NCBI GenBank assembly: GCA_025617375.2
Contig: JAMYGW020000003.1
Location: forward strand, 496,001 to 560,000
DNA: 64,000 bases
Origin: Acarospora socialis
Taxonomy: Eukaryota; Ascomycota; Lecanoromycetes; Acarosporales; Acarosporaceae
Direction of reading: 5' to 3'
The notes under the pieces are model-generated. The model ran no database searches and was not told the origin of the DNA. It was given only the letters and a program-made list of their open reading frames with translations. Positions 9,497-41,697 of the stretch are shown here, in pieces (the stretch's first letter is position 1; each line of letters begins with the position of its first letter). The translations under genes and the position numbers were made by a program.

Positions 9497-9532
9497 TAAG
9501 GTGCCTCTCTAAGGTAGGTAGGTACTAACGTA

Positions 9533-9963
9533 TTAGCCGGTTACTCGAGCCAGCCATCTAAGCGAGCCACCTCAAAATCCCATACAAATCACAAATAATT
9601 CAAAATTCAACAACTTCATAATATCAACTTCAGAATGTCTGAAATTTAGTTATATGATAAAATTAATATAATTTTACATATAAACAACAGTGAGAAGCTT
9701 AACATCTATTGTGTAGAATAAAATATAAATATTTCATAAAATACTGTAAATAACACTACTCTGTATTATCAACTTACTTTATAGAATAAATAATGATTCA
9801 TATTGTGAATAATATATATATAGATGATTTCTACAATCATTTAACAGTCTAAATTTCTAGATTTATATATGAAAGTTGTGAAGTTATAGCATTTCAAAAA
9901 TTCTGATTTTTACAGGGTTTTTTTGATGACTTGTCTAGATGGCTGACTCAAGTAACTGGTTAA
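9533..9963. mobile_element. Miniature inverted-repeat element, TA target duplication (copy 1)
   Basis: A 431-bp non-coding element flanked by TA (9531-9532 and 9964-9965). Its ends are inverted repeats: TTAGCCGGTTACTCGAG on the left and the complement of CTCAAGTAACTGGTTAA on the right. The interior aligns in reverse complement with the element at 17419-17859. The TA duplication suggests a Tc1/mariner-type mover. The left terminal repeat keeps CpG sites and normal GC, while the rest is AT-rich, so the RIP border lies inside the first 50 bases. Confidence 0.8.
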
Positions 9964-10025
9964 TACATTAAATAGGTACTAGGTAGGTACTGTTTGTTCA
10001 TGAGTATTTTTTTGACAAATTACAA

Positions 10026-10326
10026 TTAACTACTCTAAAACATGTTTTTTCTTGCTTTTATCACTCTCATTTGTGATATATAACTTTCATCTACTTCATT
10101 GCATCTACCTCTCACTAAGACTGAAGTTTTAAAATTCAACATAAGCATTAGACATTCATTTAGATGCAAGTCTTGATGTAAGTCAAGATGTTAATTTAGA
10201 CATAAGTTTAGACATGAGTCTAAACATGATTCAGTCTTATAGTGAGAGATAGATGCATGAGATAGACAAAAGTTATATCACAAGTGAGAATGATAAAAGT
10301 GAGAAAACATGTTCTAAAGTAGTTAA
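10026..10326. repeat. Fold-back (palindromic) repeat of about 300 bp
   Basis: The left arm (about 10026-10125) and right arm (about 10230-10326) are near reverse complements over about 100 bp, with outer ends TTAACTACT and AGTAGTTAA. The roughly 105-bp spacer is itself rich in TAGACAT/TAAGTC-type repeats. There is no coding capacity. Its right end runs straight into the 9-bp duplication of the large inverted-end transposon, so it predates that insertion. The family is unknown. Confidence 0.7.
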
Positions 10327-10332
10327 TAGTAA

Positions 10333-10413
10333 GAGTAAAAGACTCAGATAGTTCATGCAACTGTATAAAAGACTTTTATGATTCATGCAAGTTAGAAAAG
10401 ACTTAGATAGTCA
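10333..10413 (+). repeat. Left terminal inverted repeat of the large DNA transposon
   Basis: Matches the reverse complement of 41608-41688 with mostly C/T and G/A differences. Internally it carries a repeated motif of about 30 bases built from AAAAGACT and CATGCAA, a possible subterminal transposase-binding array. Confidence 0.75.
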
Positions 10414-10756
10414 CATGTTCAAAATTAATAGTAGCATATATATAGAACAATGTTTATAGAACTTAGAAATTGAAAATAATACTATTAATACTAAAACTAA
10501 TACTAATGATGAGATCTTCAATATGTAAAAACATTATGCTCAAACTCTTTACACATACTGTCAAAAGTGAACACCACACTTTAATCATGCTAATCATGAG
10601 TTATATTTCTAACACATACTATAGAAATGTAAAACTATCATTTAATTTTCTATTATGAATCTCATATTTTTCTGATGTAATTTCTGAGATATTTAAGTCT
10701 TTTCTGTCTGTATTTGTTTTTTTTTAGATTTCTTTTAAGACACATGAATATAAAAG

Positions 10757-10950
10757 TGTAAGTTCACTCTGATTTGTGAAGAGCTAGAACTTTCTTGTGA
10801 GATCTTGTGTAACTAGTATGCTTAGTAAGTTGATCTTTGCAAAGAGATAAAAGTGCACACTTTTTCTTTTGCAAAGACTAGCAACAATTCTATCTATACA
10901 TCTCAACTCTTAAAGTTCATTATCATATAACTGTCAAGATCAGTCTCACA
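10757..10950 (+). repeat. 5' LTR of Gypsy A
   Basis: 194 bp, TG...CA ends, same length as its partner at 24519-24712 and preceded by AAAAG at 10752-10756. Confidence 0.85.
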
Positions 10951-12108
10951 ATATTATCACTTTGATTTATTATAAAGCAGTTACTCAACAATAACTTCAA
11001 AATCAAAACAACTCTTGTGAAGAGCAGAAAGAATCACATGAGTGAAAGAAGTGAAATTAAAAAATTTTTCAATGCAAGAAAAATCTGAGTATCTGAAAAA
11101 GTCTGAAGTCTTTGTGAGTGATTTTACTGAAGATGCTCATGAATTGATTATTGACAAACTTAAAAGTAATGAGAACTTTATATCTCAGATGTCAGATGAT
11201 GAAGAAGAAGAAAAAAAGAATGAACTTGAAGTCTGTGAAATGCAAATTATATTTTGCAAAATCAATGAGCAAGTTCATGAATCTGAAGAAGTTGTTTGTG
11301 AAATTAAATACACTTTGTAAAAGAACAAAGAATCTCTTTATGAGATAGTAAACACTTTTATAAAGACATTGAAATTCAGAAAGTTCTCAGAAAATACTGT
11401 GATCTGTAAATTAAGTTAAAAATTCAGTTCACAAAGTAAAAATATACAAATCTGCAACTCTGCACACAAATTAAATATGATTACTTTGAGTCTGCAGATC
11501 TAAAGATAAATTGTAAAACTAAATGAACTTAGTCTGTAAAGATACTCTTGAATGCAAATCTCTATAAAAGCAGTATCTACAGTTATTATTGCAATTTCTG
11601 TCATCAGATGAATACTGATACAAAGAATATATTAAAGAAGACTCAGTATTCAGAGATGATTCATCATCTACATTACTTCATCATGAATTAATAAAAGACA
11701 TATTGTGAAGAGAAAGAGCTTATGAAAGAATGAGAATTCTTGAAGAAATTTTTGAAGAATTTATTAAAAGATAAAACATATTGAACTCATAATATCTGAA
11801 TAAAGTGATTGTAAATGAGTAAAAGAGATGAGAAGTTGAATGAGAAATATCTTTATTATTATAATAAACTTCAATTTCAGATAGAAAGCAAAGTAAACAA
11901 AATAAACAAGATTTAAATCATGCTCTTCTATTGTGATCTGAACAAACTTATATACAAAAAGATTTGTGAATAATCAGAGCTGTCTAATATTAAAGAGAAT
12001 ATGATAGTTTTTGCAAAGAAATTATAACTCAATTTATTCTTTCATGAACAAAAAAAAGTATCACTCTATCAAAAGAAGTTCAAGTTTTTTCAAAAGATTA
12101 ACAATAAG

Positions 12109-15100
12109 TATTGATGAGTAAAAGAATACTTGTGCTATACTACTGATTAACTGTTTATCTAGTGAAGCATACACTGTTAACTTGACTGTAATTGATGTAA
12201 ATTGTAAAGATTGTTTATTCACATGCTCTATCATGCAGACTATATGAATAATGAGTAATCTCTGATATTAGTTTCAACTAAGACTATGAAAGCAGCTAGA
12301 ACATCATACTTCTTAACACTTTCACTTGATGATACTGCATCTATTGACTTTCATTAAAAGTAAGTCTCAGTTGTTCAACAAAATACTTAAAGATTCATTT
12401 AAATAAAAACTTAATTAGTTTATCAGTCATTATATCTTAACTAAATACAAAATTCACATCAATCTGATTTTGCTTGTGCAGATCATGAATATGATGATAA
12501 ACAATGTTAATGTATTTTAATCACTCATACACATGTGCATTCTTAATCAGAATCAAAACAGTCTGATTGTCTTTCTTAAATTGAAGAAATAAGACTGCTT
12601 AATGAGTTTCATTTTTCTTGATGCTCATATAGTATAAATTGTCTTCAAAATACTTGCTTATATTCATGTTTTGCAGCATCTGTGTAAGTTAGATCTCAGT
12701 TTTTATACATATTGACATAATTATGTATTCAGTCTCTATAATTGAGATAACAACAGACTTTTACTTTTGACTTATTCATAATACTGATTTCTTTTCAAAC
12801 ATGTACACATGTTTCAGAATTAACTTTCAATCTTGTTTGTCTGATGCATAATTAAAGTTAAAATATTCAAACATGATTTGACTTTTACTGAATTCATACA
12901 CAATGTCAAAATTAATAATTAATTTCACATATCACAGCAGTTTCTTAAACACATGTTTATGATGCTCTGCAAAATCATTAAAATACTGATTTAATCAGTT
13001 TAAAGTAAAGATGATGTTTAATTGAATATGAATCATCATGTACATCAGACTTTCAATTGCATGTTGATACTGTCTTTAATCTATTTTTTTGATTAGCTAA
13101 GCTGATGAGATGAAGAGTATTATATTTATTGAGTGAAATTGTTGTGATTTTGTGCTTATTAAATCATATGTGAAGATCTCTCAACATCTTATTTACATAA
13201 TGAGTCTGATCTAGATGTAGAATTCTTCTCTTGTGATTGTGTATAACTTATATATTAAGAATTTTCTGTGTCTTTCTTAAGTTCTTAACTTTGAACATCT
13301 TCACAAAAACTTTTTTGAATCAGAGAACATGTGTTAAATTTACTGAAATCACAATCATATCATTTACATAAAAAAGCAGCATGATTCTTTTGATGCTGTT
13401 GATGAAAAAACATAAATTGATGTTATTTTAATGAAAGTTTAACTTGTGTAGATCAATGACATATTGTTTATGTTAGTTTTGTACAGTTTGCTTCAGATTA
13501 TAAAGATTATGTAATATACATAGTGTATAGTCAGATGTAACTTGAACTTCAGAAGAAACTGTTATATAGATGATTTTTTTAAGAAAGAATTTCATGAAAA
13601 CATTGTTGATGTTTACTTAATAACATTCAAGATTCTCAAGAACAACAATGACAAGAAAGACTCAAAGAGTATTGAATTTAATTATAAATACAAAGATGTT
13701 TTCATAATCAATGTCATATATCTGTAAGAAATCTCTTGTCATAATTTTTATTTTAAATTTGTTCAGAGATTCATCAGTATTCAGCTTAAGTTTGAATATT
13801 TATTTACTGATCACTATGTTTGCATTCTTTAATGACACAATCTTTTTTTATATTTCATTGACTGTCAGAGCTGTCAACTCTGCATGAATAACATTCTTTT
13901 ACATCTTTCTTCAAACTGAGTTTCTTACTGCTTCAGTATAAATGACAGATGTGAAAATGTTAAATTTAATGTTCTCAGTATTTTTCTCATTATCTGCAGT
14001 AAATGTTGTAAATATCAGCATAATTCATGATATCTTAATCATGAGTTCATTGAAGTCTTCATTGTCACTGTTTTGTTTTCTCTTTAAAATCTCAATGCAC
14101 AAGAATGTCTTGACTTTCTCAGTTAAAATATTCAGTGCTTTGCTGACAGAAACTTCAATATGTAAAAACTGTTTGATTTTACTCTGTTTATTTGTCTGTG
14201 ATCTATTTAAGTTAATTGTAATCAATTTATTCATCATATAAATATCTAATGAGAATGTGTCAAAATTATCTGCAATTAACTTAAACTTTTCTTTGTTGTC
14301 TAAACTCATAAATCTGAATCTGTGAATCTGCTCAGAGATAATAGACAGAATTGTAGATGTTGTAAGATCTGTGATGACTATATTCTTTTATAATTATTTA
14401 ACTGACTTTTGTTCAGACAGAATGTTCAGCATTTATCTTTGCAGTTTAAGATCAATACTGTTTTTCTTTTCATTCTTGACAAACTTTACAGTATAATTTT
14501 TAATGATTCACTTAAGATCTGAAACTCAAAGCAGATATTGCTTTGTGATTTTATCTGCATAATTCATGAAAACTTTTACTTATTCTTAATTTATAAACTT
14601 ATTCTGTCTGCTCTTCAGCAACAACTTGAGATCAATATAGAAGTAATATTTGTAATTTCAGACACAAATGTAATTAATGAACAGCTGCACATCAGTAAAG
14701 ATCTTCTTCAAAATTATTTGTCTGTCATTGATCAAGAAATCAGTTGCTGTTCAGTTGTAAAAATAAATATTTGTTTACACTGTCTTCATTTAAAACTTTA
14801 TTGAAAGTTCTGTCTTCTTGATCATGATGTGCACTGAATTCTCAGTAATATGAATAACTTTTTCAACAATATTATTCTGAGTAAACATGTAAAACACAAT
14901 ATACTGCAGTGTAATGTCAAAGAATCTGCATCAGTTATTCAAAATTAATTTTAATTCTGTGACATTGTCACTCTATACAGCAAGCACTCTTACATTATCT
15001 GAAACTTAATCTTTAATCATTATTCTTGCAGTTTCTGTGAAACATTATCACATTATTTCAGCAATATTATTTATATCTTTCAAGAATAATTGTTCACAAT

Positions 15101-18022
15101 CTTCAGAAAGTACTAATATTTGATAAATGATAAAGATAAGAAATTACATATATCAATGAAAATTAAAACAAGAATGTTGATCTTTCTCTTATTCACATTG
15201 TGTTTTTGTTGATTGACAAACTTAATGAGAGCACAAATTTCACAGACATTTTTCTTGTTTTCAGCAATGAGAATTGACTTCTTAAGAATCATAACTTTGT
15301 AAAGATCATGAAGTTTTGCAGAATTAAGATGAGCAAATTGTTGATGTTATAACTTGTAAATCTTAATCTTCTCACTTAAAAATGAAGTATCAGCAGAAAA
15401 TGAAGTGTTAACAGAACTTAATGAATTAATTTGTATCTGAAAGTTTACATTCAGTATTATAACTGAAAGAGTCATTTCTGAATTAAATAATACATGTATA
15501 ACAGATAACAGAGTGAACTCATTCAGTTTTTTTGCAATGTATTTGACTATATAGACACTGTTCTGCTCAGATGCTTCTATCATAATATTGTTATGTTTAT
15601 TTCACATGTAAAAACTGTGCTGATCAAAGCTTTTCTGCAATTTCATTTCACATATTCACTTTTTCAACAAAAGATTGACTTCTAGTTCAGATACATAGAG
15701 TGTTGAACTCAGATTCACAAAATTTCTGAATTCATTCTGTATGACTGCAACTTCACAGTAGTGTAAATATAAGTGTTTTTTTTTTAACTTTGATTTGTCA
15801 GCACTGTATGCATATTAAGAAATCACTGAAGAGTTAACATTGATTAATTATGTATATGAAGTATTCAAAGTTCACAATTCACTCAAAACTGAATATCTTA
15901 CTGACAGCTTTCTTAAACAGAGTAACAATCTCATTGTCTTTCTCTGCATCAGACTCAGATGAGAATAAATCACTGTTTTTCTCAGTTTCAGCATTGAAAA
16001 TTCTATGCTTTCTGTTCTTGTGCTTGAACTTTATTTTGTTTTTATGATGTGAGTTGTTTACAAACAACTTGTCTAACTTTCTGACTGATTTAATCATGAT
16101 TAAGACAAATAAAATTCTTAACTTAACATTCTTGCAAGCAGCAGAAAAATATTCACAGTCTTAAATGCAATGAAAGTCACAACAAAGAAGACATTTAACT
16201 GATTTATGCTGAGAAAAATGATCATTGTCAGAACTTAACAATCTTCAATAATAATATTTCACATAATGCTGATGTAAGTGTATTAAATCTTTCTCTTTGT
16301 ATTGATCTGCACACAAGACAGTTTCAATAATTTTTAATTGTGTCTTTTTCTCTTGAAGCTTCTGCAGATTTCTTTTAATGTTTGAACTGTCTTGAGTATT
16401 AATTGCATCACAGATCACTGTATAATTCTCAGATAATATTTGAAGAAGTGTCTGAAATTGTTGCTCAAACTTAAATAAATTAATCATATCAAACTGAGTG
16501 ATTACAATCTTTCTGTCAAGTTTGCTGAGATGTGTTCATACTTCATTAATAAATACATTTGTCAACATTTTATATTCAATAAACTTTGTTAAATATTGTT
16601 TTTCAATGATCTGCAGCTTCTTTCTGTATTTGAACTTCAAGATATTTCAAGTATTTTTTGCATTAATTTTATCTGCAATATATTTCTGATTATCTACACT
16701 GATATAGATAATGAATTAGTATAAAGTCTTTGCATTAGACTTCTGACTTTTAAAGTTAAAATTGCTGAGTAAAAAGAAGAAATCATTAACAAAAATATTG
16801 ATTACTGAGATCTCAACAGTGTATTATAGATCTTCATTTATCAGCTATTTTCTCATGAAAGTAAATCATTGATTGCAGTTCTTGCAACTGAGAATTGAGA
16901 TGAGTTATCACTTCATGAAAAAGTTATTGAAATTCATGATGTAGCTTTTGATAATGATCAACACATAATATAAGAAATAAATAAAATGAAGTATTAAGAT
17001 GTACAGAAAAAGATAATGTAAATAAGAGAAAGAAGAAGTGTGTGTATTTATTTGCTCAATCATTGAGTACTGTATTAAGTTGTCAGTAAGTTTCATTTTG
17101 CTTAATCTTAGTGTTCTGTATCAAGTGTCAAGTATGTTATTTTGCTTAATCTTTGAGTTTTATATTGATGATCAAAAGTGCTTGTTTTGATTTCATATTA
17201 AGCTGTTAAAAGTGTCATCTTGCTCAATCTTAAAGCTCTGTATCAATGATCAGTAATGCTTGTTTTGCTCAATCTTTGAGTTCTCATATCAAACTATCAA
17301 GACACTAAAACAGTATGCACTTTCTCTGAAAAGCTTCTTGCTAACTTGAGCTCATAATTTATTGAATTTATTGAAAGATAAAAAGAATACTTGTACTATA
17401 CTACTGACTAACTGCTTAATGTAACTGTCAGTTATTTAAGTCAGTCACTTAAGTGAGTCATCAAAAAAACATGTAAAAACCACAAATTTTTGAAATGCTA
17501 TAACTTCACAACATCTATATGAAATCTAGAGATTTAATCTGTAAAATGATTATAGATATCATGTATATATATAATACTCACTTCTTGAATCATTACTTTT
17601 TCTATAAAGTAAGTTGATGATACAGAGCAGTGTAATTTACAGTATTTTATGAAATATTCATATTTAATTCTATCTAATAGATATTAAATTTCTAACTGTT
17701 GTTTATATGAAAATTTATATTAGTTTCTATCATACAATCAAATTCCAGATATTTTGAAGTTAGTATTATGAAGTTGTTGAATTTTGAAATAGTTGTAATT
17801 TGTATGAGATTTTGAGATGACTCACTTAGGTGACTGACTCAAATAACTGGCAGTTACATTATTTAGTGAAACATACATCATTGACTTAATCATGATCAAT
17901 GTGAATTGTAGAAATTGTCTATTCACATACTCTGTTATGCAAACTATATGAATAATGAGCAATCTTTGATGCTAGTTTCAACTAAGACTATGAAAGCAGC
18001 TAAAACACTGCACTTCTTAACA
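12109..18022 (-). mobile_element. Copia 1: Ty1/copia LTR retrotransposon in reverse orientation (fossil)
   Basis: LTRs of about 210 bp lie at 12109-12318 (3') and 17369-18022 (5', enlarged by a miniature element). Coding similarity runs on the minus strand: gag-like frames around 16.5-15.9 kb, protease and integrase around 15.6-14.5 kb, reverse transcriptase around 14.2-13.0 kb and RNase H around 12.6-12.4 kb. It is the same family as Copia 2 and lies inverted to it. It sits inside Gypsy A. I could not find a matching target duplication. Heavily decayed, with many breaks. Confidence 0.85.
17419..17859. mobile_element. Miniature inverted-repeat element, TA target duplication (copy 2), inside the Copia 1 LTR
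   Basis: A 441-bp element with ends ATGTAACTG and CAGTTACAT and inverted repeats of about 43 bp, flanked by TA at 17417-17418 and 17860-17861. Deleting it restores an LTR matching the three other Copia LTRs, which lack it and read CTGTYTATCTAGTG at the site. Same family as 9533-9963. It has no coding capacity. Confidence 0.85.
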
Positions 18023-21000: not shown

Positions 21001-21174
21001 AATTCTTGAACAGATAAAAAATCAAGTTTATAAGTTAGAGCTATTGAAGACTCTAAATATTCATAATATCTTTTATATCAGTTTACTTTGAGTTCATAGA
21101 TCTCACAAAGACAACAAATTTTCAGAATCTGAATCTTTATGTTTAATGATAGATCTGAATATACATCAACAAGA

Positions 21175-21779
21175 TTGTAAAGTAGCTCAGAGCTGGCTCT
21201 GAGCTGAATTTTACTCACTTTTACTTAAAAAACTGTGTTTAGCTAGTTGAGCTCATGTACTAGCTCTGAAGTGCTTTGAGCTAGCTCTGAGCTACATATA
21301 AAATGTGTATAAAAGTGAATAATATTCATAAATAAAATCATAAAAAATTGCTTAATAATCAGTTTATATTTAGAAACTTTCTTGACTTTAGATAAATTTA
21401 ATAACTATAAGTGTGTGTAGTACTAGTAATAAAAATATATTAAATACTAGTGTATTTTGTCTGAATTTTTCAAAAACAAAATTATAAATGCACTAGTGTT
21501 GATGACTCATTAATTAGAGCATTAGTGTTGTTTTTACACTAAGCAATTAAGCTTAAAGCTTAGTGTATAGTTTAATTCTAATTTTAGTAATTTGTAATAT
21601 ATGATGTAAAATATAATATAAATGAAATATATAATTTATAAACTTACTAAGCAGCTCAGAGTCAGCTCAAAGCACTCAAAGCAAGTATACACAGCTAAAA
21701 TCTAGCTCTGAGCTGACTCTGAGCTGCTTTTTTACTTTTTTCTAAGTCAAAATAGCTGAGCTGTCTTTCAACTTGCCAA
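21175..21779. mobile_element. GAGCT-rich inverted-repeat element inside Gypsy A
   Basis: About 605 bp with imperfect inverted ends containing repeated AGCTCAGAGC and GCTCTGAGCTG words (21184-21216 and 21704-21727) and outer ends ATTGTAAAG and CTTGCCAAT. It interrupts the Gypsy A polyprotein region just after the IHNVFHVSLL-like segment. It keeps a few GG/CC pairs that its surroundings lack. No protein is visible and no clear target duplication; exact ends are uncertain by a few bases. Confidence 0.6.
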
Positions 21780-25192: not shown

Positions 25193-25258
25193 AATTATGA
25201 GCTCAAATTGACAAGAAGCTTCTCAGAGAAAGTGCATACTGTTTTAGTGTCTTGACAG

Positions 25259-28600: not shown

Positions 28601-30597
28601 AGTCAGAAACTGGTCAACACTGAAATGAATCAAGAAAGTACAAGTCTTTCTAGAATTAATGAACTATTATTGAAAGTTTGTACCAAACTATGCAAGAATT
28701 GCAAAATCACTAATGCATTTGATGCACAAAAGCAAAGAATAACATTGAGATCAAGAGCAGAAGAATGCATTTCACATATTAAAGAGAAGTTTTAGTGAAA
28801 CAGCACATCTGAGAATACTCAATTCAACATGTGAGAAAACACTGAAAACTGATGCTTCAAATTTCACAGTAAAAGCATGTTTGTATCAGATTGAGAATGA
28901 GCAACAGAGACTCATAGCATATCAATTTAGAAAGTTATCAGAACTCAAGAAAAGATACAAGATTCATGATAAGAAACTTCTTGCAATAGTGAAAGCACTA
29001 CAAGACTGAAGATCTTATCTTGCAGAAACAAACAAGTCAATTTAGATCTATACAGATCACAAGAATTTGAGAAACTTCACAACAACAAAGCAACTCAATC
29101 AACAACAAGTTTGTTGAGCAGAGCAGTTGACAGATTATGAATTTCAGATTCATTACAAGAAGAGTAATGAGAATGATGAAGTGAATGTCTTGAGTAGGTG
29201 ATCTGATCATGAAGATGTACAAATGATACACATTGAAATTCTAAGCAAAAACAACAAAGAAGTTCTCACAAAGAACTTAGCAGCAATGTACAAGATAAAA
29301 CAAGCTTTCTTGACAGACAAAGAACTCATAAGAATGTGTCACTACAGTAGAACTGAAGAACACCTAGAAGTTAAATGCATTGAAGATCTAGTGTGAAGAA
29401 GACACAACATTAGTGATTTTAGAAATTGAATCATCAAGATGATCACTGTATGCAATTCATGTCAAAGAAACAAGATCAGTCAAGATAGACAGTATGATGA
29501 AGTAACATGACTAGATGCACTGAATACACTGTGAAAGTCAGTTATCATGAACTTCATCATGAAGTTATCACTGTCAAAAGACTCAACATGAGAAGTGAGA
29601 TTCAACAGCATATTGACAATAGTGAATAGATTGATCAAGTACACAATGTTCATTTCATTTAAAGAGATCACAACAGCACCAGTATTGATGTACACCATAC
29701 TGCAAGAATTGATTAGCAATCATGAACTATCAAAAAAGTTTATCATCAATAGAGACAAGCTGTTCACAAGCAAGTTTTGAGAAATGCTCACAGCAGAACT
29801 TGAAATAAAACACAAGATGTCAACAGCATATCACTCACAGACAAATGAGCAGAGCAAACAAATGAATCAGACAGTAAAAACATACTTGAAACACTATATC
29901 AACAGAAATCAGAACAACTGAGTATGAATGTTGCTGATGACACAGTTCACATACAACAACACAAGAAATGAGATCACAGAAGAAACATCTTTCTATGTGA
30001 ATTATGATTATAACTCAAAGATATGACAAGATCTCAGAGAACACAGATCATAAAGTCAAAAAGTGATTTTGAATATCACTCAGATGAAGAAACTGTATCA
30101 AGATCTGACAAAGCAGATCAAACAGTAGATGAAATAAGCAACAGAAGCAAAGTCATTTGAGAAAGAAGAAAAAATATATCTGAAAATAAACAACATATAG
30201 ATAAAAGAAAGAAGCAAGAAGCTGAAGAACAAGAGCATTGAATCATTCAAGATCATATGAAACATCAAAGAGTTAAGCTATGAGCTAGACTTACTCAAGA
30301 AAATGAGAATACACTCAGTATTTCATGCATTCATGTTACAGCATTGCAACCAGTTCATATCACTTCAAATCATCAAAACATCTGTCAAACTCAACAAAGA
30401 ATATGAAGTCAAGAACATTCTAGAAAAGAGAATGATTAGTGAGAAAGCTCACTATCTCATAAAATGAAAAGATTACAATATCTCAGAAAATACCTGAAAA
30501 CTCAAAGAGAATCTCAAGAACTGCATGAGAACACTTCAACATTTTGAAAAAGAAAGTTGACATTAGTTCAGAAGAATGATGACATCAAATCAACAAG

Positions 30598-31050
30598 TTA
30601 TGACATTGTTTGAGAATCTTCATTCTCAGTTTCATCATTATCACTATCAAGTTCAGCAGCAAAACAGTCAGTCTTCTGCAAAGCACAGCAATTCATCTGA
30701 TTCAGTGTTTTCTGAAGACATATGACTTTTGAGAAAAGTGCAGCAAGCTCAGTGTGCTTGACTGTTAATTCACTGTTTGCTTTACTTATTTTCTTTTGAA
30801 GCAAAAGACAAGTTCTATTGAGAGACTTTCACAATACATTGACACATGAATGATCACAGCAAGTACACTTATTGCATTTTGATCAGAATTTCATTACAAA
30901 ACAATTGATGCTGCAACAGACACAATAGTCACAAGAAAACAAGACAGGCACACCACTGATCTGAATTTTCTTTGCAATTCTTAGATGATTTGAATTTTTA
31001 GAAAGCATCATTGCTGATGACAGATGATGTGAATACTCTCACTTATATAA
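30598..31050 (-). pseudogene. Antisense Cys-rich, coiled-coil reading frame near the 3' end of Gypsy B
   Basis: On the strand opposite to gag-pol, between the chromodomain and the 3' LTR, a frame of about 150 codons contains a cluster of paired cysteines (CDYCVCC, CNKCTCC) followed by a heptad-like Leu/Lys stretch and an acidic tail rich in Asp/Glu/Ser. The clean part is 30598-30804. Antisense extra genes near the 3' LTR occur in some fungal Gypsy lineages; whether this one was ever expressed is unknown. It shares the decay of the element. Confidence 0.5.
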
Positions 31051-31086
31051 ACTTTAAAGAACTAGTGTCTGAGAAGAGAAGAATAG

Positions 31087-31438
31087 TGTTACAGTCAAGT
31101 TGAAATGAGCTTAGAGCAAACTGATGTGTACATGCAGAAGACATATATTCAAGGAATGTTTAGACAGCAGTCATGTGACATCTTGACATGCTTGATGGTG
31201 AGCTTGACAAGCAAGCTCAACAGATTGCATGAGTGAGCTGTCTCAATGAGCTCAATGACAAGGCTGGTGAGCAGACTCAGTATATAGTCACAGTCATTTC
31301 TCTTGTGAAAAGAATCATGTTCAACTTAAATAACAATTTAAGAGTTAAAGACCAGAACCATTTCAGACCAGCTGTTATATCAATAAGCACAAACTCTTAG
31401 CTCTACATACCTGAGAAAGCTCAGGTTAGAACATTATA
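31087..31438 (+). repeat. 3' LTR of Gypsy B
   Basis: 352 bp; keeps several GG dinucleotides that are lost in the 5' copy. Followed by GATAG, which is also the uninterrupted sequence at the same site in Copia 1. Confidence 0.85.
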
Positions 31439-34400
31439 GATAGCTTGATATGAGAACTTAAAAATTGAGTAAAACAAGCATTATCAGCTGTCAATACAGA
31501 ACTCAAAGATTGAGCAAAATGACATTCTTAACACTCAATATGAAGCTTTAAGATTGAGCAAAACAAGATTTACTGACAACTTGATACAGTGCTCAATAAT
31601 TAAGTAAACAAGCACACACACTTCTTCTTTTCTTATTTACATTATTTTCTTTTATACATCTTAATACTTCACTTTATTCATTTCTTATACTACATGTCAA
31701 CTGTCATCAAAAGTTACATTATGAATTTTGATGACTCTTTCACAAAATAACAACTCATTTCAATTCTCAGTTGCAAGAACTGCAATTAATGATTCACTCT
31801 TATGAGAAAATAACTAATAAATGAAGATCTGTGATACATTATTGAGATCTCAGTGATCAATATTTTTATCAGTGATTTCTTTTTCTTACTTAACAATCTT
31901 AACTTTAAAAGTCAGAAGTCTGATGCAAAAACTCTGTATTGACTCATCATTTATATCAGTGTAAATGATTAAAAGTATATTGTAGACAAGATCAATATAA
32001 AAAATGCTTGAAATATCTTGAAGTTTAAATACAAGAAGAAGCTGCAGATCACTGAAAAACAATATTTAATGATGTTTATTGAATACAGAATATTGACAAA
32101 TGTATTTATTAATGAAATATAAGTATATCTCAGTAAACTGAGTAAAAAGATTGCTGTGACTCAGTCTGATATAACTGATCTATTTAAGTCTGAGCAACAA
32201 TTTCAGACATTTTTTCAAGTATTATTTGAGAATTATACAGTAATTTGTGATGCAATCAACACTTAAGACACTTCAAACATTGAGAGAAGTCTGCAGAAGT
32301 TTCAAGAGAAGAAAATACAATTAAAAATTATTAAGACTATTTTGTGAACAGATTGATGCAAAAAGAAAGATTTAACACACTTATATCATCATAATGTAAA
32401 ATATCACTATTAGAGATCATTAAGTTTTGATAATAACTGTTTTTTTTAACATAAATCAATTAAATATCTTCTCTGTTACAACTCTCATCACATTTGAAAT
32501 TATGAATATCTTCTTGCTGCTCACAAGAATATTGAATTAAGAAAGTTATTTGTTTTAATTACAATCAAGTCAGTCAAAAAGTCAGACAAATTATCTGCAG
32601 ACAACTTACATCATAAAGACAAAATAAGATTTAAGTACAGAAACAGAAAGTATAGAGTTTTTGATGTTAAGACTGAAAAAAACAATGATTCATTCTCATT
32701 TAAGTTTGATGCAGAGAAAGACAATAAAATTATTACTCTGTTTAAAAAAGCTATTAATAAAATACTTAGTTCTGAATGAGTTGTGAATTCTGAATACTTT
32801 ACACACATAACTGATTAATGTCAATTTTTCAGTGATTCTTTAATATGCATATGATGTTAAAGAATTAAAGTTGAAAGAAAACACTTATACTCTCACTACT
32901 ATAAAGTAGCTGTAATGCAGAACAAATTCAAAAACTTTGTAAGTCTGAGTTTAATACTCTGTGTCTGAACTAGAAGTTAATCTTTTATTGAGAAAGTGAA
33001 TATGTGAAATGAAATTGCAGAAAAGCTTTGATCAGTACAGTTTTTATATGTAAAATAAACATGACAATGTCATGATAGAAATGTCTACATAGTTAAATAC
33101 ATTGCAAAAAAACTGAATGAGTTCACTTTATTATCTGTCATACATATATTATTTAATTCAGAGATGACTCTTTTAGTCACAGTACTGAATGTGAACTCTC
33201 AGATGCAAACTGATCTGTTAAGCTCTGCTGATACTTTATTTTTTGTTGACACTTTATTTTTAAATAAAAAGATCAAGATTTACAAGCTGTAACATGAACA
33301 GTTTGCTCATCTTAACTCTGCAAAACTTCATAATCTTTACAAAGTTATGATTTTTAAGATGTCAATTTTAATTGCTGAAGACAAGAAGAATGTATGTGAA
33401 GTTTGTGTTATCATTAAATTTATTAATCAACAAAAACACACTATAAGTAAGCAGAAGATCAACATTCTTGTTTTGATTTTCATTAATATATGTAATTTCT
33501 TATCTCTATCATTTACTGAACATCAGTACTTTCTGAAGATTGTGAACAATTATTTTTGAAAGACATAAACAATATTGCTAAAGTGATGCAATAATATCTC
33601 ACAGAAACTGCAAAAGTGACAACTAAAAATTAAATTTCAAATCAATATAAAAATACTTGCTGTACAGAGTGACAATATTACAGAGTTAAGATCAATTTTA
33701 AATGATTAATGCAGATTCTTTAACATTACACTGCAGTATACTGTGTTTTATATATTTATTCAGAATAATATTGCTGAAAGAGTCATCTGTATTATTAAGA
33801 ATTTAGTGTATATCATGATTAAGAAGACAGAACTTTCAATAAAGTTCTGAATAAAGACAGTGTAAATAGATGTTTATTTTTACAATTAAATAATAACTGA
33901 TTTTTTAATCAACAACAGACAAATAATTCTGAAAAATATCTTCACTGATGTACAGCTGTTCATTAATTACATTTATATTTAAGATTACAAGTATTACTTC
34001 TATGTTGATCTTAAGTTGTTGTTGAAGAACAGACAGAATAAGTTTATGAATTAAGAATGAGTGAAAATCTTCATGAACCATATAAATAAAATTACAAAAC
34101 AGTATCTGCTTTAAGCTTTAGATCTTAAGCAGATCATTAAGAGTTATGCTTTGAAGTTTGTTAAGAATGAGAAGAAAAACAGTGTTAATCTCAAACTGCA
34201 AAGATAAATGCTGAACATTCTGTCTGAACAAAAATCAGTTAAATAATCACAAAAAAATGTAATTATCATGAATTTCACAGCATCTACAACTCTGTCTACT
34301 ATTTTTGAACAAACTTACAGATTTAGATTCATGAATTTAAATAATAAAGAAGAATTCAAGTTGATTGTAGACAATTTTGATACATTTTCATCAGATATTT

Positions 34401-36317
34401 ATATAATGAATAAATTAATTGTAATCAACTCAAACAGATTACAGACAAATAAACAGAATGAAATTAAGCAGTTTTTACATATTGAAGTTTTTGTCAACAA
34501 AGCATTAAATATTTTAACTGAAGAAGTTAAAACATTCTTGTGTGTTAAGATTCTGAAAAGAAAATAAAATAATGATGATAAAGATTTTAATGAGTTTATG
34601 ATTAAGATATCATGAACTATGTTGATATTCATAACATTCACTGCAAATAATGAAAAAAATGCTGAGAACATCAGATTTAATATTGTCATGTTTGTTATTT
34701 ATGCTGAAGCAGTGAAAGATTTAGTTTGAGAAAAGATGTAAAAGAATGTTATTCATGTAGAGTTGACAACTTTGACAGTCAATGAAACATAAAAAAAAAT
34801 TGTGTCATCAAAAAACACAAACATAGTGATCAGCAAGTAAATGTTCAAATTTAAACTGAACATTGATGAATTTCTGAACAAGTTTAAGACAAGTTGTAAT
34901 AAGAGATTTTTCATAAATATATAACATTAATTATAAGAACATCTTTATATCTACAGTCAAGTTCAACACTCTTTAAGTCTTTCTTGTTATTGTTGTTCTT
35001 AAGAATCTTGAATGTCATTAAGTAAATATCAACAATGTTTTTACAAAATTCTTTCTTAAAAAAATCATCTACATGACAGTCTCTTCTGAAGTTCAAGTTG
35101 TATCTGACTGTGCACTGCATGTATTGTGTAATTTTTATAATTTAAAGTAAATTGCACAAAACTGATATAAATAATGCATCACTGATCTGCACAAACTAAA
35201 CTTTCATTAAAACAATATTAATTTATATCTTCTCATCAACAGCATCAAAAGAATCATGCTGCTTCTCTATGTAAACAATATAATTATAGTTTCAATAAGT
35301 TTGACACATGTTCTCTGATTTAAGAAAGTTCTTATGAAGATATTTAAAATTAAGAACTTAAAAAAGACACAGAAAATTCTTGACATATAAGTTATACATA
35401 ATTACAAAAAAGAACTCTACATCTAAATCAGACTCATTATGTAAACAAGATGCTGAGAGATCTTTATATGTAATTCAATAAGTATAAGATCACAACAATT
35501 TCACTTAATAAATATAATGTTTTTCATTTCATCAGCTCAGCTGATTAAAGAATAAATTAAAGATAGTATTAACATGTAATTAAAAGTTTAATGTATATGA
35601 TAATTCATACTTAATTAAACATTATCTTTACTCTAAACTAACTAAATCAATATCTTAGTGATTCTGCAGAATATTATGAACATGTGTTTAAGAAACTGCT
35701 GTAATATATGAAATCAATCATTAATTTTAATATTGTGTATAAATTCAGTGAGAGTTAAGTCATGCTTGAATACTCTGACTTTAATTATGCATCAGACAAA
35801 CAAGATTGAAAGTTAATTCTGAAATATGTGTACATGTTTGAAGATAAATCAATATTATGAACAAGTCAAAAACAAAAATCTGTTGTCATTTTAATCACAA
35901 AGACTGAATACATAATTATGTCAATATGTATAAAGACTGAGATCTGACTTACACAGATGCTGCAAGACATAAATATAAACAAGTATCTTGAAGACAATTC
36001 ATACTGTATGAACATCAAGAAAAATGAAGCTCATCAAGCAATTTTATCTCTTTAGCTCAAAAGAAACAATCAAACTGTCTTAACTCTGATTAAAAATGTA
36101 TATGTACATAAGTGATTAAAATACATTAATATTGTCTATCATCATATTCATGATCTGCACAAGCAAAATCAAATTGATGTGAACTTTGTGCTCAGTTAAA
36201 ACATGATGACTGATGAATTAATTAAGTTTTTATTTAGATGAATCTTTAAACACTTTGTTGAATAACTGAGATTTACTGTTAATGAAAGTCAATAGATGCA
36301 GCATCATTAAGTAAAAA

Positions 36318-36527
36318 TATTGAGAAGTACAGTGTTCTAACTGCTTTCATAGTCTTAGTTGAAATTAACATTAAAAATTATTCATTATTCATATGATCTG
36401 CATGACAGAGTATGTGAATAAATAATCTTTACAATTTACATTGATCACAGTTAAGTTAACAGTGTACATTTCACTAGATAGACAGTTAGTCAATAGTATA
36501 GCACAAGTATTCTTTTATCTCTCAATA
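36318..36527 (+). repeat. 3' LTR of Copia 2
   Basis: 210 bp, pairs with 24983-25192, followed by AAAAT at 36528-36532. Confidence 0.85.
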
Positions 36528-36900: not shown

Positions 36901-37086
36901 TGTTATGAATTTGTCATAAAGCTCAGTGAGATTAAAACTCTGTAATAAGATAAGACTCTGCAAAAGTACCTGTCACTAGATTTCATTAGATGCAATAGAG
37001 TAAAACATCACTTTCTAGATAGTTTTTTTAAACAATTAACACATTATCATAGACTTAGAAATCAATCATATAAATTGATTCTAACA
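36901..37086 (+). repeat. 5' LTR of the gag-protease element
   Basis: 186 bp, same length as 40166-40351, preceded by AAGAG. Confidence 0.85.
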
Positions 37087-38951
37087 ATTAATAGCATTAA
37101 CTGATTAAAGCATTCAGTCTAAATTTTCATATCTAGACATCAGTGAGCTCAAAATACTGCATCAAATGTTCTCTGCATTAGTTTATGAAATCAAACAAAA
37201 AAATGAGACATTTACTTCATCAAATCAGTCTGTTTTTAACATCAAAAACAGTCTTTTTTCAGTATGATTAGCATCAATCTAGTCAATATACATCACAAAG
37301 ACAAGACAGCAATCATACAGTTCAATAACTTAAGTTCTGAATTTTATTGTTGCTTTACTTAAGACTTCATAAATGCTCTTGTCAGTTAAATAAAGAATAC
37401 TCATTTAACTGATGTTGAAAAGCAGCAAAATAATCTCATTCTAACAGATATCAACAAGATGTACAATACTATTGAAAAGTCTAACACAAATCTGAATGTC
37501 AAATTAGACACTCAATTTGATGAGATTCTCAAGACATTACATTGTCAATTCACATCACAACAGTCTTAATCACATTGTTCTGACAGCTCATCAATCTCAT
37601 TAAAGATTACAGCTAAACAATCTTCAACAGAGTGATTAGTGAAGAAAGAATTATGAAATAATAATGACTATGATTTAGAAGATTTGAGCAAGAATTATAC
37701 TGAAAAATGAAAAGAAAAAAAACATAAAATTATCACAGTTCTTTGTGACAATGATGAGTCTTATTTGACAACATTTCAAGTGAACAAAATAGACTTCTTC
37801 AACTCACATCTTGATGAGACTATTGATGAAAGCAAGATCAATATTGTTTAAGTTAATTATGACATCTACTATCATGATGTTCATCTCTTTGTTGATTAAG
37901 TCAAAACTATAGTCAATGTTAAAGACAGCTATTATGTACAAATTGATCTGCATTTGTGTCTCTGCAGTGTTGCTCAAGAATAATATGCAATTAAACTTAA
38001 TGATATTCAACAAAACAGCATGCAAGATGATTACAACATCATTAACTGAGTAAATGTTTTAATAACTCAATTCAAGCAATCAGAGCAAATCACACTCAAT
38101 GTTCTTCTTACTTTACAATACAACATCAAGAATATTCACAAACACAGTTCTGTATCATATATTCAGACTGTTGTTTAATACAGAAGAAATGCTGATCTTT
38201 TTACATTAAATCAGCTATTCATAGTCTGAAACAAACTTAACACTGATTTTCAACACAATGTTTTTTGTTCTACAATTCACATCATCATTGCAATCTTCAT
38301 TCAGCAATTAAAAGATCACAAGAACATGTAAAAATGACTGTTTTCTTGTCTGCTGTTGTTACAAGACTTTCAATGATATAAATCTTCAAATCACAGTTAC
38401 TTTACAAATTCACTGTCTTATGACAACAATCTGTATTTAGATTACAGCAAAAACAATCATTAAAACAATATGTTAAATCACTGTTATCTGTCTTGTTCTT
38501 ATAAAAATCATGACTATAATTTACATTAAAATGATACATCAAATCAAGAAAATCACTCATCACAGCAATAACTTTTTCATTCTTGATTCATCAATCAGCT
38601 ATTTTGTGAACACAAATCTTAAGAACAGCAATCTCAGTCAGTTTATTATGTGAATTTTGACAATAACATTGATGCACACTCAGTGACTTACTATGTAAAT
38701 CAACAAAATAACAAGTACATCAATCAAAACTCTAGTCAAGACAAAACAGAGATGCATGACTACACAAATTAAACAATTGCACAGCAAACTTATTCATGTC
38801 TGACATGCAAAAAGATCTTTTCTTCAGTTACACACCTCAAATATTATGTCATTGATGCTCACTACAACTATCTTGTCTCATTGTATCACATCAACATTGT
38901 TATTTCTATTGACTACATCATCATGAAGATCAACATCAACAGTTTTATTAT

Positions 38952-39330
38952 TAAAGTGACTGTCAAATCAGTCTAACCTTAACTTAACTCAATTTGACTT
39001 TGATCTGATCTGTGAGTCAGATCAAAATTTTGAGACTGACTTAATCTGTGAGTCAGGTCAGGTCAGAACTTCTGATTTGAATTGACTCATAAATCAATAT
39101 ATATACTATATTTAGCTTTAAAGTCTCATTTTGAGTCTCAATCTGAAGTTTTTGTTAGAAATATACATTAAATCTACTATATTTAGTATGTACAAATCAT
39201 CAAGACTGACCTGATCTGACTTTAACCTGATTTACAGATCAGATCAAAGTCAGAAATTTAGATCTGACTTAATCTGTGAGTTAAGTCAGATCAGAAATTC
39301 TTGATCTGATCTGATCTGATAATCACTTTA
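38952..39330. mobile_element. Small inverted-repeat element rich in GATCTGA words
   Basis: About 379 bp with ends TAAAGTGA and TCACTTTA and long imperfect inverted arms made of repeated GATCTGAC/GTCAGATC words. It separates the gag-like and protease-like parts of the surrounding LTR element. It keeps CC and GG pairs that its host has lost, which suggests later insertion. The target duplication is unclear because the flanks are themselves AT-rich. Confidence 0.6.
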
Positions 39331-40165
39331 CTCATTATTAAATCTCAGTCTATCTGTCTAGACTCTGATGTCATTTACACACTTATTGACTGCAGTTTAG
39401 CTGCTAAAAATCTTTCACAATTTAGTGAAACAATCTTACAAATCAACAATATCATCAGCAACTTTATCTTCAACAAGTATGTCAATCTATGTCTTTACAT
39501 TCATGATGATGACAACAAAGATAAAGAAAAGATCTTTGTCAATTGCAAGACTTATATTGTGAATAGTCTTGACACAAACATTCTCATTAACATGAATGTT
39601 ATGCAGACAGAAGACATGATTTTGAACTGCAAAAATGACAAGTTAATTATGAATAGTCATCATGAATTTACAACTTTCTTTACTAGATTCTTGAAGACAA
39701 GTGATACAAAATGAGTTGTTATCTTTTTCTATGAAATAACAGTACAAATGACTACATCAAGTTTTCACAAAAAAACATTTGAAAAGACCTCAAAAAACAT
39801 GCAAAATTCAGTGATTTTAAACATCAAATTAGACATTAAAACAATCATTAAATCAACAACAAAATCACTTTCTCATGTATGTCACACATGTCATGCATCT
39901 TATTCATCATCAAATAATCTTCACAGACATCTTCAAACATCTGATTACATCTTATCTTGTTATTTTTATTCTTGTTGTTGCTGTTCATGCTGTTGACTTG
40001 ATAAATCATGAAGAAAAGACATTGATAAAGAAATCATAATGAATAAGATTACATGAGAAGTTTAGACACAGAATTTAGCAGAAAATCTTATTATTGTCTT
40101 GCTTCATACTAGTATGACTAGCATACATGATGAGAGTGTTGTCTTTTCTGTTTTTTGTGAGCAGT

Positions 40166-40351
40166 TATTATGAATTTGTCATAGAGCTCAATGAGATTGA
40201 GACTTTGCAATAAGATAAGACTCTGTGAAAGTACTTGTCACTAGATTTCATTAGATGCAATAGAGTAAAACATCACTTTCTAGATAGTTTTTCTAAACAA
40301 TCAACACATTATCATAAACTTAGAAATCAACCATATAAATTGATTCTAACA
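40166..40351 (+). repeat. 3' LTR of the gag-protease element
   Basis: 186 bp, followed by AAGAG at 40352-40356. Confidence 0.85.
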
Positions 40352-41394
40352 AAGAGAAAAGTTACTTACTATGTATTATAATCAGTTCTTCATAGCAGAT
40401 TGTATTTTTCATAACTTTCTCATTGTTTTTTCAAAAATATCTGCAGTCTTTATTCTAACTATTTTTCAGAAGCACTGTCTCAATATCTGTTTAAATTTCT
40501 TTATAAAATTATTGAAAAGATAATAACAACAATATATTGACATCATCTGTACTTTGAAAACTGTCTTTGTTTATAATAATTCTTTATTTCTGTCAGACAT
40601 CAAAATGCAGTTCTGCATCTCAGAAATTGCTTTTTTGAGATGTATAAAGAAATATTTTCATGAATTTTTAAACTTACTTTTCATCACTGCTCACACAAGA
40701 AACAGATTTTTTCTGTTGACATCAATTGTAATTGTAAGCAGAAGTGTCTGCACAAAGTGAACTTTTAAGAAGATGTTGTTAATGACAATAAAAAAATAAC
40801 AATATTGAAAAAAGATGTGTAACTGTGCAGAACACACAAAATATTATTTAAAGTTATTTAACAACAGTGTTAATAGAGAAGCAGAAAGAAAAAAATTGCT
40901 TATTTATAACTGAATCTATTATTAGATCTGTATAAACATCAGAAATTTATAGTTATAGTTTTCACATGTAGAATAGTAACAATTGAAAACTGTATCATTA
41001 AGATTCTAAATCACTGTTCAGAAGTTTCAGTTTAATTTATTGAATTATTTTATAGTTTATGATCTTCTCAAAGTATACTCAAAGACAGTTCATTATATCA
41101 TGAGACTTTGTAGTTCTTGTGACACATAAATGTCTCAACACTGTTTTCTGCATTCATGACTGAGTGTAGACTGCAATATATTTTATTATATCTGTCTTCA
41201 GACAGATATGAACTTCATTTATTAACAGTATCATCATCATTTCATTCTTCAGATCTGTTCAAACTCTTTATTTACAGATTTTAATGTGATATTTATATAT
41301 AATATGATGAGAATGCTTTGCAGAAATCTTGAATGCAAATTTAAATGTAAAAACACATAATTAATATAGTAAACAAATACAGAAAGAAACTTAC

Positions 41395-41509
41395 TTCTTC
41401 TTGATGAATTAATTGTTGATTGTCTTGCACAAATTCTTTCAATTAATGAAGATGCTTTCTTCAGACAACAAAGAAAGCTCTGAAAGTGCTGACATTGTGA
41501 TGTTGACAA
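41395..41509 (-). pseudogene. Probable first coding exon of the large DNA transposon
   Basis: An ATG at 41509 opens a frame (MSTSQCQHFQSFL..) that reaches a GTAAGT donor at 41394 after a basic SSRR end. It lies about 100 bases inside the right inverted repeat, the usual place for a transposase start. Further minus-strand similarity to a coding region is scattered over 40352-41250 but is full of stops. I recognise no catalytic motif. Confidence 0.4.
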
Positions 41510-41607
41510 TAATAAGATGTTGTGATGAGCAGAGTGAGATGTAATGATGATGTGTTGAGAACTTGAGAACTCAGAGATGTGAATGACAGCAGTGAGACTT
41601 GAATCTA

Positions 41608-41688
41608 TGACTATCTGAGTCTTTTCTGACTTGCATGGATCATGAAAGTCTTTTATGCAGTTGCATGGACTACCTGAGTCTTTTACTC
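41608..41688 (-). repeat. Right terminal inverted repeat of the large DNA transposon
   Basis: Reverse complement of 10333-10413. It keeps GG (CATGGAT, CATGGAC) and is less mutated than the left repeat. TAATAGTAA follows directly, then normal-GC DNA resumes. Confidence 0.75.
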
Positions 41689-41697
41689 TAATAGTAA

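What the first reader, a model, noticed from the sequence alone, without database searches (positions are those of the whole stretch)
9533..41697. Four-level nest of transposons readable to the base
Equal-length LTR pairs (194/194, 210/210, 352/352, 186/186 bp) and target duplications (9 bp TAATAGTAA; RAAAG; AAAAT; GAYAG; AAGAG) let the 32-kb island be peeled into layers. The DNA transposon holds Gypsy A, Copia 2 and a gag-protease element. Gypsy A holds Copia 1, and Copia 1 holds a miniature element. Copia 2 holds Gypsy B. Only about 2.4 kb belongs to the outermost element. This gives a relative insertion history without a molecular clock.
Basis: partly seen in the sequence, partly recalled or inferred. 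Interest (0 to 1): 0.75.

Follow-up and report, generated by a model that had tools for sequence, protein, structure and literature searches.

The report
Ten fungal transposons nested five deep
A 32-kb stretch of a fungal chromosome is a set of dead transposons inserted into one another five deep; the layers can be put in order, but one layer looks like the scar of two insertions fused by recombination.

Summary
The nest is real. All four LTR pairs (194, 210, 352, 186 bp) and all five stated target duplications are confirmed to the base. Copies elsewhere in the same 31-Mb genome serve as empty sites for several layers. Corrections: (1) the outer element, 10333-41688, is Mutator-like (MULE) and not outermost. 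It sits in the right end of a palindromic MITE, six bases of which lie beyond it, giving five levels. (2) Two inner miniature elements were missed: 21164-21781 and 38952-39330. (3) Copia 1 is not one clean insertion: no target duplication, LTRs of different types, about 610 bp of Gypsy A missing. Of 15 copies scored, the 4 without a duplication are exactly the 4 with mismatched LTRs (marker chosen after inspection), pointing to recombination between Copia insertions. (4) 'Gag-protease' has no support. The four LTR pairs differ by 105 transitions and no transversion, so LTR divergence cannot date them. Such nests are known in fungi. Least ordinary is the mutation context: CpG and CpC are erased while CpA is spared, the reverse of textbook RIP, so standard RIP indices miss it.

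The parts
9528..9968 (.). MITE1 (441 bp, TA target duplication at 9526-9527/9969-9970), beside the nest and not part of it; the AT-rich island begins inside it
   Evidence: copies at 95-97% elsewhere; TA/TA checked, 4 CpG and 12 CpC+GpG left
10014..10332 (.). MITE2, palindromic, outermost layer; its right terminal bases continue at 41698-41703 on the far side of the MULE
   Evidence: self-palindrome runs across the joined empty site (positions 38-356, junction at 353) and the relative L063 has matching termini
41698..41703 (.). last bases (TTTACC) of MITE2 beyond the MULE
10324..10332 (.). left target duplication of the MULE, TAATAGTAA
10333..41688 (-). outer DNA transposon, Mutator-like (MULE), own sequence 2389 bp in four pieces (10333-10756, 24718-24982, 36533-36900, 40357-41688), terminal inverted repeats of at least about 90 bp
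   Evidence: TIRs; exact 9-bp duplication; weak PF10551 match at 40508-40789 minus; three pieces match successive parts of a MULE transposase frame
41689..41697 (.). right target duplication of the MULE, TAATAGTAA
10757..24712 (+). Gypsy A (Ty3/gypsy), LTRs 10757-10950 and 24519-24712, TSD AAAAG/GAAAG
   Evidence: LTRs and TSD; RVT_1, RNase H, integrase H2C2, SH3_Tf2-1; paralogues
12109..18022 (-). Copia 1 (Ty1/copia), apparent product of recombination between Copia insertions; no TSD; its right-hand LTR is interrupted by MITE4
   Evidence: RVT_2 E=1.4e-17 on minus strand; no TSD and mismatched LTR types; about 610 bp of Gypsy A missing versus 17 paralogues
17419..17859 (.). MITE4, same family as MITE1, inside the right-hand LTR of Copia 1, TA duplication
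   Evidence: inverted match to 9526-10044; Copia 1's other LTR and both Copia 2 LTRs show the uninterrupted site; TA/TA
21164..21781 (.).
   Evidence: eight main matches elsewhere at 85-94%; empty sites in Gypsy A paralogues L040, L041 and solo copies L042-L044; TA/TA
23577..24400 (+). 39- to 41-bp tandem array in the 3' part of Gypsy A
   Evidence: families D1 and D2; extent
24983..36527 (+). Copia 2, same family as Copia 1 in opposite orientation, LTRs 24983-25192 and 36318-36527, TSD AAAAT
25259..31438 (+). Gypsy B, Ty3/gypsy with chromodomain, LTRs 25259-25610 and 31087-31438, TSD GACAG/GATAG
   Evidence: Pfam domains; Copia 1 shows the uninterrupted target with one GATAG
36901..40351 (.). 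small LTR element (about 3.07 kb without MITE5), no recognised retroelement coding domain, LTRs 36901-37086 and 40166-40351, TSD AAGAG
   Evidence: no gag or protease domain; relatives
38952..39330 (.).
   Evidence: empty sites L052-L054; solo copies L055-L057, each with an exact 8-bp TSD (read by eye); window TSD

Best explanation
The island is a five-level nest of dead transposons in an unnamed filamentous ascomycete (host class inferred). MITE2 landed first. A Mutator-like DNA transposon inserted in MITE2's right end, duplicating 9 bp and leaving 6 bp of MITE2 beyond the duplication (shown). Gypsy A, Copia 2 and a small LTR element without recognised coding domains then inserted into the MULE, each with a 5-bp duplication (shown by TSDs; continuity of the MULE protein is shown across the small LTR element, marginal across Copia 2, not shown across Gypsy A). 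Gypsy B inserted into Copia 2, MITE3 into Gypsy A and MITE5 into the small LTR element (shown by sites without the guest). Copia 1 is the scar of at least two same-direction Copia insertions in Gypsy A that recombined, deleting about 610 bp of Gypsy A and one element's worth of Copia (inferred from missing TSD, mismatched LTRs and missing target DNA). MITE4 inserted into one Copia 1 LTR, before or after the recombination (not resolved). A repeat-directed C-to-T mutator stripped the layers to 24-33% GC.
For: LTRs and TSDs to the base. Sites without the guest in the same genome: Gypsy A without MITE3, small LTR element without MITE5, Copia without Gypsy B, Copia LTR without MITE4, MITE2 relative without the MULE. 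Exact 9-bp TSDs in two TIR relatives, L007 and L010, of the three others with both ends (compared by eye). Three MULE pieces match successive parts of the L058 MULE frame in order and strand: 63.9, 36.6 and 29.3 bits versus maxima of 33.9, 31.2 and 28.9 in 300 random island segments each. Copia family: 11 of 11 scored copies with a TSD have matching LTR types and 4 of 4 without have mismatched types (for the 14 scored first, Fisher p=0.001). In 17 Gypsy A paralogues the two flanks lie 616-626 bp apart.
Against: No strain or species comparison was possible. The MULE's leftmost piece shows no protein match above background; the third piece only just exceeds the null (29.3 versus 28.9). With the second MULE copy, L059, as query the second piece scores 30.8 (not above the L058 null maximum) and the third does not match at the expected place; no null was run for L059. 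The MULE Pfam match is below its cut-off (20 versus 27.6 bits). MITE2's end beyond the MULE is only 6 bp and MITE2's own target duplication was not found. One TIR relative with both ends (L006) has no 9-bp duplication. The LTR-type marker was chosen after looking at the copies. No breakpoint could be mapped in Copia 1: the 11 type-diagnostic columns lie only near the two ends. Two further left-flank matches (71%) had no right-flank match listed and say nothing on the 610 bp.
Confidence: 0.88

Rival explanations
1. Copia 1 is a single insertion whose integration or repair went wrong: non-canonical, deletion-associated joining that removed about 610 bp of Gypsy A and left no TSD.
For: Absence of a TSD plus target deletion is also what end-joining capture would give. 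In the paralogues a 7-bp AATAAGT lies at both breakpoints.
Against: A single insertion should have LTRs of one type. Copia 1 has the 9-bp repeat at the edge of one LTR and not the other; the three other TSD-less copies show the same mismatch while all 11 TSD-bearing copies match.
Confidence: 0.15
2. Copia 1 joins the left part of one Gypsy A copy to the right part of another through ectopic recombination between Copias in two different Gypsy A elements.
For: Also predicts no TSD and mismatched LTRs; Gypsy A has many paralogues.
Against: The outer LTRs of Gypsy A carry a matching AAAAG/GAAAG duplication, expected by chance for about 1 in 32 pairs if transitions are ignored (simple reckoning, not a call).
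Confidence: 0.12
3. The outer inverted repeats and 9-bp match are coincidental and there is no outer MULE; the LTR elements merely piled up side by side.
For: Only 2.4 kb is assigned to it, and the inner 1 kb of its right piece has no match listed elsewhere in the genome.
Against: 89% TIR match over 90 bp, exact 9-bp TSD, two TIR relatives with exact 9-bp TSDs, MULE domain and transposase pieces in order.
Confidence: 0.03
4. The nest is an assembly artefact.
For: Repeat-rich, AT-rich DNA is hard to assemble.
Against: Nine elements, eight of them in the nest, have target duplications at exact ends; the two Copia copies and each LTR pair have their own C-to-T differences; the window lies inside a 3.17-Mb contig.
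Confidence: 0.02

Closest known systems
Nested transposon clusters of Mycosphaerella graminicola (PMC4522978, passages read)
   Same: 78 nested clusters of 7.5-63 kb with 2-7 different elements, some with a DNA transposon or unclassified element as base, TSDs verified, low GC, a RIP-like process, and a warning that RIP inflates LTR ages
   Different: There CpA to TpA is the mutated context; here CpA is spared. Here ten elements in five levels, with a layer that looks recombinant
Podospora crapaud LTR retrotransposon (PMC10787394, passages read)
   Same: 7 of 150 full copies have disparate 5' and 3' ends, attributed there to gene conversion or ectopic recombination
   Different: Here the mismatch goes with loss of the TSD in 4 of 4 cases, which favours crossing-over over conversion
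Plant LTR retrotransposons lacking TSDs after unequal recombination, and nested/original age contradictions (PMC7251063, passages read)
   Same: Intact elements without TSDs are a stated product of unequal recombination; nested elements had more diverged LTRs than their hosts in 1042 of 4126 pairs
   Different: There gene conversion is the suggested cause; here C-to-T mutation plus recombination
Repeat-induced point mutation (RIP): N. crassa and T. reesei orders (PMC5496416, one passage), other contexts (PMC4352252, PMC2621366, passages)
   Same: Dense C-to-T changes in repeats; LTR pairs differ by transitions. CpG-biased cases exist, and S. nodorum repeats are depleted of CpC and CpG too
   Different: N. 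crassa CpA>CpT>CpG>CpC, and S. nodorum loses CpA with TpA gained; here CpG and CpC are exhausted while CpA is in excess and TpA is not raised

Membership tests
Mutator-like element (MULE), outer transposon | 9-bp target duplication | tested here: met
   TAATAGTAA exact; also in relatives L007 and L010, not in L006
Mutator-like element (MULE), outer transposon | long terminal inverted repeats | tested here: met
   89% over 90 bp; 81% over 127 aligned columns
Mutator-like element (MULE), outer transposon | MULE transposase domain | tested here: inconclusive
   PF10551 nearly full profile but 20 bits, below cut-off 27.6; 63.9-bit match to the frame of a genome copy that passes the cut-off
Ty1/copia, Copia 1 and 2 | RVT_2 reverse transcriptase downstream of integrase-side domain | tested here: met
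   Copia 1: gag_pre-integrase (E=0.0023, below its cut-off) then RVT_2 (1.4e-17) on the minus strand; Copia 2 by DNA similarity only
Ty1/copia, Copia 1 | 5-bp target duplication | tested here: not met
   ATAAG versus CTTTC; family member by sequence, insertion history altered
Ty3/gypsy, Gypsy A and B | RT-RNase H before integrase | tested here: met
   order of RVT_1, RNase H and Integrase_H2C2 (the H2C2 matches are just below their cut-off); Gypsy B also has a chromodomain
   no such Pfam match in six frames with X at stops; heavy mutation and the MITE5 insert may hide it
Classical RIP | RIP indices: product >1.15, substrate <=0.75, composite >0 (thresholds from PMC7882544, passages) | tested here: not met
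   island product 0.74, substrate 1.50; host flanks 0.72-0.79 and 1.15-1.29; 0 of 163 low-GC 1-kb windows pass, 152 of them from the Copia loci
Classical RIP | C-to-T transitions dominate between repeat copies | tested here: met
   105 transitions, 0 transversions in four LTR pairs; Copia 1 LTR parts 30 to 1 and Copia 1 versus 2 807 to 31
Classical RIP | acts in the sexual cycle and needs RID/DIM-2 | not testable with these tools
   three cytosine-5 methylase candidate loci exist; activity unknown

The most novel reading that the evidence does not exclude
This fungus has a repeat-directed C-to-T mutator with reversed context: it hits C before G or C first and to exhaustion and touches C before A or T late, so repeats carry no CpG and almost no CpC but keep CpA. 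Surveys based on CpA indices would score its repeats as free of RIP.
Probability: 0.5. Interest if true: 0.65.

Novelty: new member of a known kind. Interest (0 to 1): 0.4.

Why it matters
The nest is a clean worked example in which containment order, empty sites and TSDs can be held against LTR dating, and LTR dating fails: Copia 1 (82% LTR identity over the 171 bp compared) lies inside Gypsy A (94%). It shows that a visible layer can be the product of several events, and suggests a simple diagnostic (no TSD plus mismatched LTR type) that flags four candidate recombinants among 15 copies. If the mutation context is real and general, standard RIP indices undercount RIP-like defence in some ascomycetes, and the methyltransferases of this genome become a way to ask what sets the context.

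Tried and rejected
Rejected: MITE1 as part of the outer element (own TA duplication; near-identical copies elsewhere). Rejected: an early alignment that seemed to place Copia 1's left flank next to its right flank in paralogues; the true left junction lies about 610 bp away. Rejected: Copia 1 on the plus strand (no Pfam match in three plus frames; minus frames match). Led nowhere: a type switch inside Copia 1 (11 diagnostic columns, all near the ends); a transversion clock on LTRs (none in four pairs); tRNA and Rfam scans (none); naming the species (no relatives held; a flanking UTP22 gene is nearest to PDB 6rxv, whose organism the listing does not print). Residual CpC+GpG density as an exposure clock was weighed: the guest exceeds its host for Gypsy B in Copia 2 (5.83 versus 0.19 per kb) and for the three inner MITEs, but Gypsy A and Copia 1 tie at 0, and the MULE (1.67) exceeds its guests Gypsy A, Copia 2 and the small LTR element (1.31), so it is confounded by length and copy number.

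Against the context claim: in polymorphic Copia columns CpA and CpT are also mutated (312 and 376 columns with the next base fixed), and raw mismatch counts between copies are mostly CpA and CpT because little CpG or CpC is left to differ. Literature searches showed no report of a CpG-plus-CpC context with CpA spared in what I read. Clutterbuck 2011, cited in PMC4352252 as a survey of ascomycete RIP, is not held. In three papers opened for 'CpC' the word was a culture or strain number (PMC5602860, PMC9073689) or a program (PMC4234444).
Full report
What was checked. The window lies at C3:496001-560000 of an unnamed 31.1-Mb genome in 38 contigs with no relatives held. The flanks are about 50% GC and gene-bearing; the island drops to 25-34% GC in 1-kb windows and has no open frame of 150 codons. 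A flanking gene is a UTP22 relative whose best PDB match is 6rxv. I take the host to be a filamentous ascomycete (inference).

Observation. At exact coordinates the LTR pairs are 194/194, 210/210, 352/352 and 186/186, with identities 93.8, 86.2, 85.8 and 92.5%. The five target duplications read TAATAGTAA/TAATAGTAA, AAAAG/GAAAG, AAAAT/AAAAT, GACAG/GATAG and AAGAG/AAGAG. The one-letter differences are transitions.

Outer element. Its ends match as inverted repeats (89% over 90 bp). Searching the genome with its right part lists TIR relatives. Among the three other relatives in which both ends were found, L010 and L007 have exact 9-bp duplications (TTAGGATTA, TAGAAAATA) and L006 has none (flanks printed, compared by eye). 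A MULE transposase profile matches 40508-40789 on the minus strand, one of 4 matches reported in the genome, but below its cut-off. As a test of the peeling, the four leftover pieces were compared in six frames with the MULE frame of L058, a genome copy that passes the cut-off. Three pieces match successive, slightly overlapping parts of that frame on the predicted strand: residues 410-547, 565-671 and 654-727, at 63.9, 36.6 and 29.3 bits. The best of 300 random island segments of the same lengths reach 33.9, 31.2 and 28.9. With L059 as query the first piece scores 64.7 and the second 30.8, the third does not match at the expected place, and the fourth is at background with both; the null was run for L058 only. 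Continuity across the small LTR element is thus fairly well supported, across Copia 2 marginal, and across Gypsy A it rests on TIRs and TSD.

A layer outside the outer element. Immediately left of the MULE is a palindrome. Its relative L063, at C3:1610720-1611180, begins GGCAAATTACAATTTACTAC and its other end, reversed, reads GGCGAATTACAAACCC. In the window the left end is GACAAATTACAATTAACTAC. The right end reads TAATAGTAA, then the MULE, then TAATAGTAA and TTTACC, so the palindrome closes only across the MULE (self-match 38-356, junction at 353). The MULE therefore landed in MITE2's right end, with 6 bp of MITE2 beyond the duplication. The nest is MITE2 > MULE > Gypsy A > Copia 1 > MITE4, five levels.

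Missed inner layers. Gypsy A paralogues run through window 21163/21784, where the window has 618 bp; that sequence has eight main matches elsewhere at 85-94%, and two empty sites and three solo copies were aligned. Relatives of the small LTR element run through 38951/39331, where the window has 379 bp; three empty sites were aligned, and three solo copies each have an exact 8-bp duplication: ATTGTTAC, GCTTTATT and AACAGAAT (read by eye). The window's own is TTTATTAT/CTCATTAT.

Copia 1. It lies on the minus strand (RVT_2). Its flanks ATAAG and CTTTC are not a duplication. In Gypsy A paralogues the two flanks lie apart: in all 17 copies for which both flanks were listed, the hit ends are 616-626 bp apart (recount), of which about 7 bp are present in the window, leaving about 610 bp missing. 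Junctions were aligned for 8 copies on the right and 7 on the left. Two further left-flank matches at 71% had no right-flank match listed and were dropped. Of the 20 genome loci fetched with Copia 1, one is Copia 1 itself. Thirteen of the other 19 had both LTRs and were scored together with Copia 1 and Copia 2; the remaining six (L026-L031) had only one LTR in the locus and were dropped. Of the 15, 11 have a 5-bp duplication (8 exact, 3 differing by a transition), and in all 11 the two LTRs agree in having or lacking a 9-bp repeat at their edge. The 4 without a duplication (L013, L020, L021, Copia 1) all disagree. For the 14 scored before L025 was added, Fisher p=0.001; the marker was chosen after looking, so this p is indicative. 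Two LTRs of one insertion are copied from one template and should agree (established knowledge), so recombination between insertions is the simplest cause. Because both flanks are the same Gypsy in the same direction and Gypsy A has its own matching duplication, I favour two insertions in one Gypsy A. No breakpoint could be mapped.

Dating. The four LTR pairs differ by 105 transitions and no transversion; the comparable parts of the Copia 1 LTRs differ by 30 transitions and 1 transversion. Copia 1, inside Gypsy A, has LTRs 82% alike (171 bp compared), while Gypsy A has 94%. LTR divergence here measures C-to-T exposure and shared history, not age. Containment is the sounder order.

Mutation context. 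In 10332-41688 there is no CpG in 31 kb, CpC is at 0.05 of expectation and CpA at 1.53; each layer inside MITE2 has 0 CpG. TpA/ApT (0.74) is no higher than in the host flanks (0.72-0.79). Over 163 low-GC 1-kb windows from 26 loci, CpG is 0.004, CpC 0.025, CpA 1.54 and CpT 1.21 of expectation; none of the 163 passes the RIP thresholds quoted in PMC7882544, and 160 have no CpG. These windows are far from independent: 152 of 163 come from the 20 Copia loci, and L004 and L012 overlap the window. Direction was checked with less-mutated copies: from L064 to MITE1, C was lost in 8 of 34 CpG/CpC and 2 of 91 CpA/CpT (p=0.0004); from L063 to MITE2 (left part), 14 of 22 versus 13 of 72 (p=0.00009); from L064 to MITE4, 19 of 33 versus 18 of 87 (p=0.0003). 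These are three comparisons on two MITE families; two share L064, and the third has 29 transversions, so its direction is less sure. The genome has three methylase loci. L060 has a strong methylase match, BAH and DNMT1-RFD matches below their cut-offs, and matches the 1456-residue PDB chain 9bap at 642 bits. That it is DIM-2-like, and that L061, with no BAH found, is RID-like, are inferences.

What is known. Nested clusters with TSDs and a RIP-like process are described for Mycosphaerella graminicola (PMC4522978, passages). Disparate LTR ends in 7 of 150 copies are described for Podospora crapaud (PMC10787394, passages). TSD-less elements from unequal recombination, and nested elements with more diverged LTRs than their hosts, are described in plants (PMC7251063, passages). 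For RIP context, PMC4352252 lists CpA, CpT and CpG signatures, PMC12543289 concludes on a shared CpA preference, RIPCAL (PMC2621366) reports CpG and CpA cases and, for S. nodorum, depletion of CpC and CpG alongside a dominant CpA to TpA change, and PMC5496416 gives N. crassa and T. reesei orders with CpC last (passages in each). I saw no report of CpG plus CpC with CpA spared, within the searches.

Verdict. The specialist surprise lies in the recombinant-looking Copia layer and, more, in the mutation context.

Noticed in passing
window 52647-58135: A second AT-rich island of about 5.5 kb bounded by inverted repeats of about 0.5 kb (74%), possibly another DNA transposon with a TA duplication; also free of CpG.
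   Followed up: partly
window 9528-9600 and right edge near 41700: The AT-rich state stops abruptly: inside MITE1 on the left (its first 60 bp keep CpG) and near the MULE end on the right, so mutation seems hardly to leak into unique DNA (by eye).
   Followed up: partly
window 10333-41688, Copia loci L012-L031, MITE copies L063 and L064: CpG absent and CpC nearly absent while CpA is in excess: RIP-like mutation in a reversed context that standard RIP indices miss.
   Followed up: partly
window 23577-24400: 39- to 41-bp tandem array in the 3' part of Gypsy A; some paralogues align across it, so it may be family-wide.
   Followed up: no
C3:574519-577509 (outside the window): A copy of the small LTR element without MITE5 lies about 38 kb downstream on the same contig.
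   Followed up: partly
L060, L061, L062: Three cytosine-5 DNA methylase candidate loci in the genome; L060 looks DIM-2-like, L061 has no BAH domain in the part seen.
   Followed up: partly
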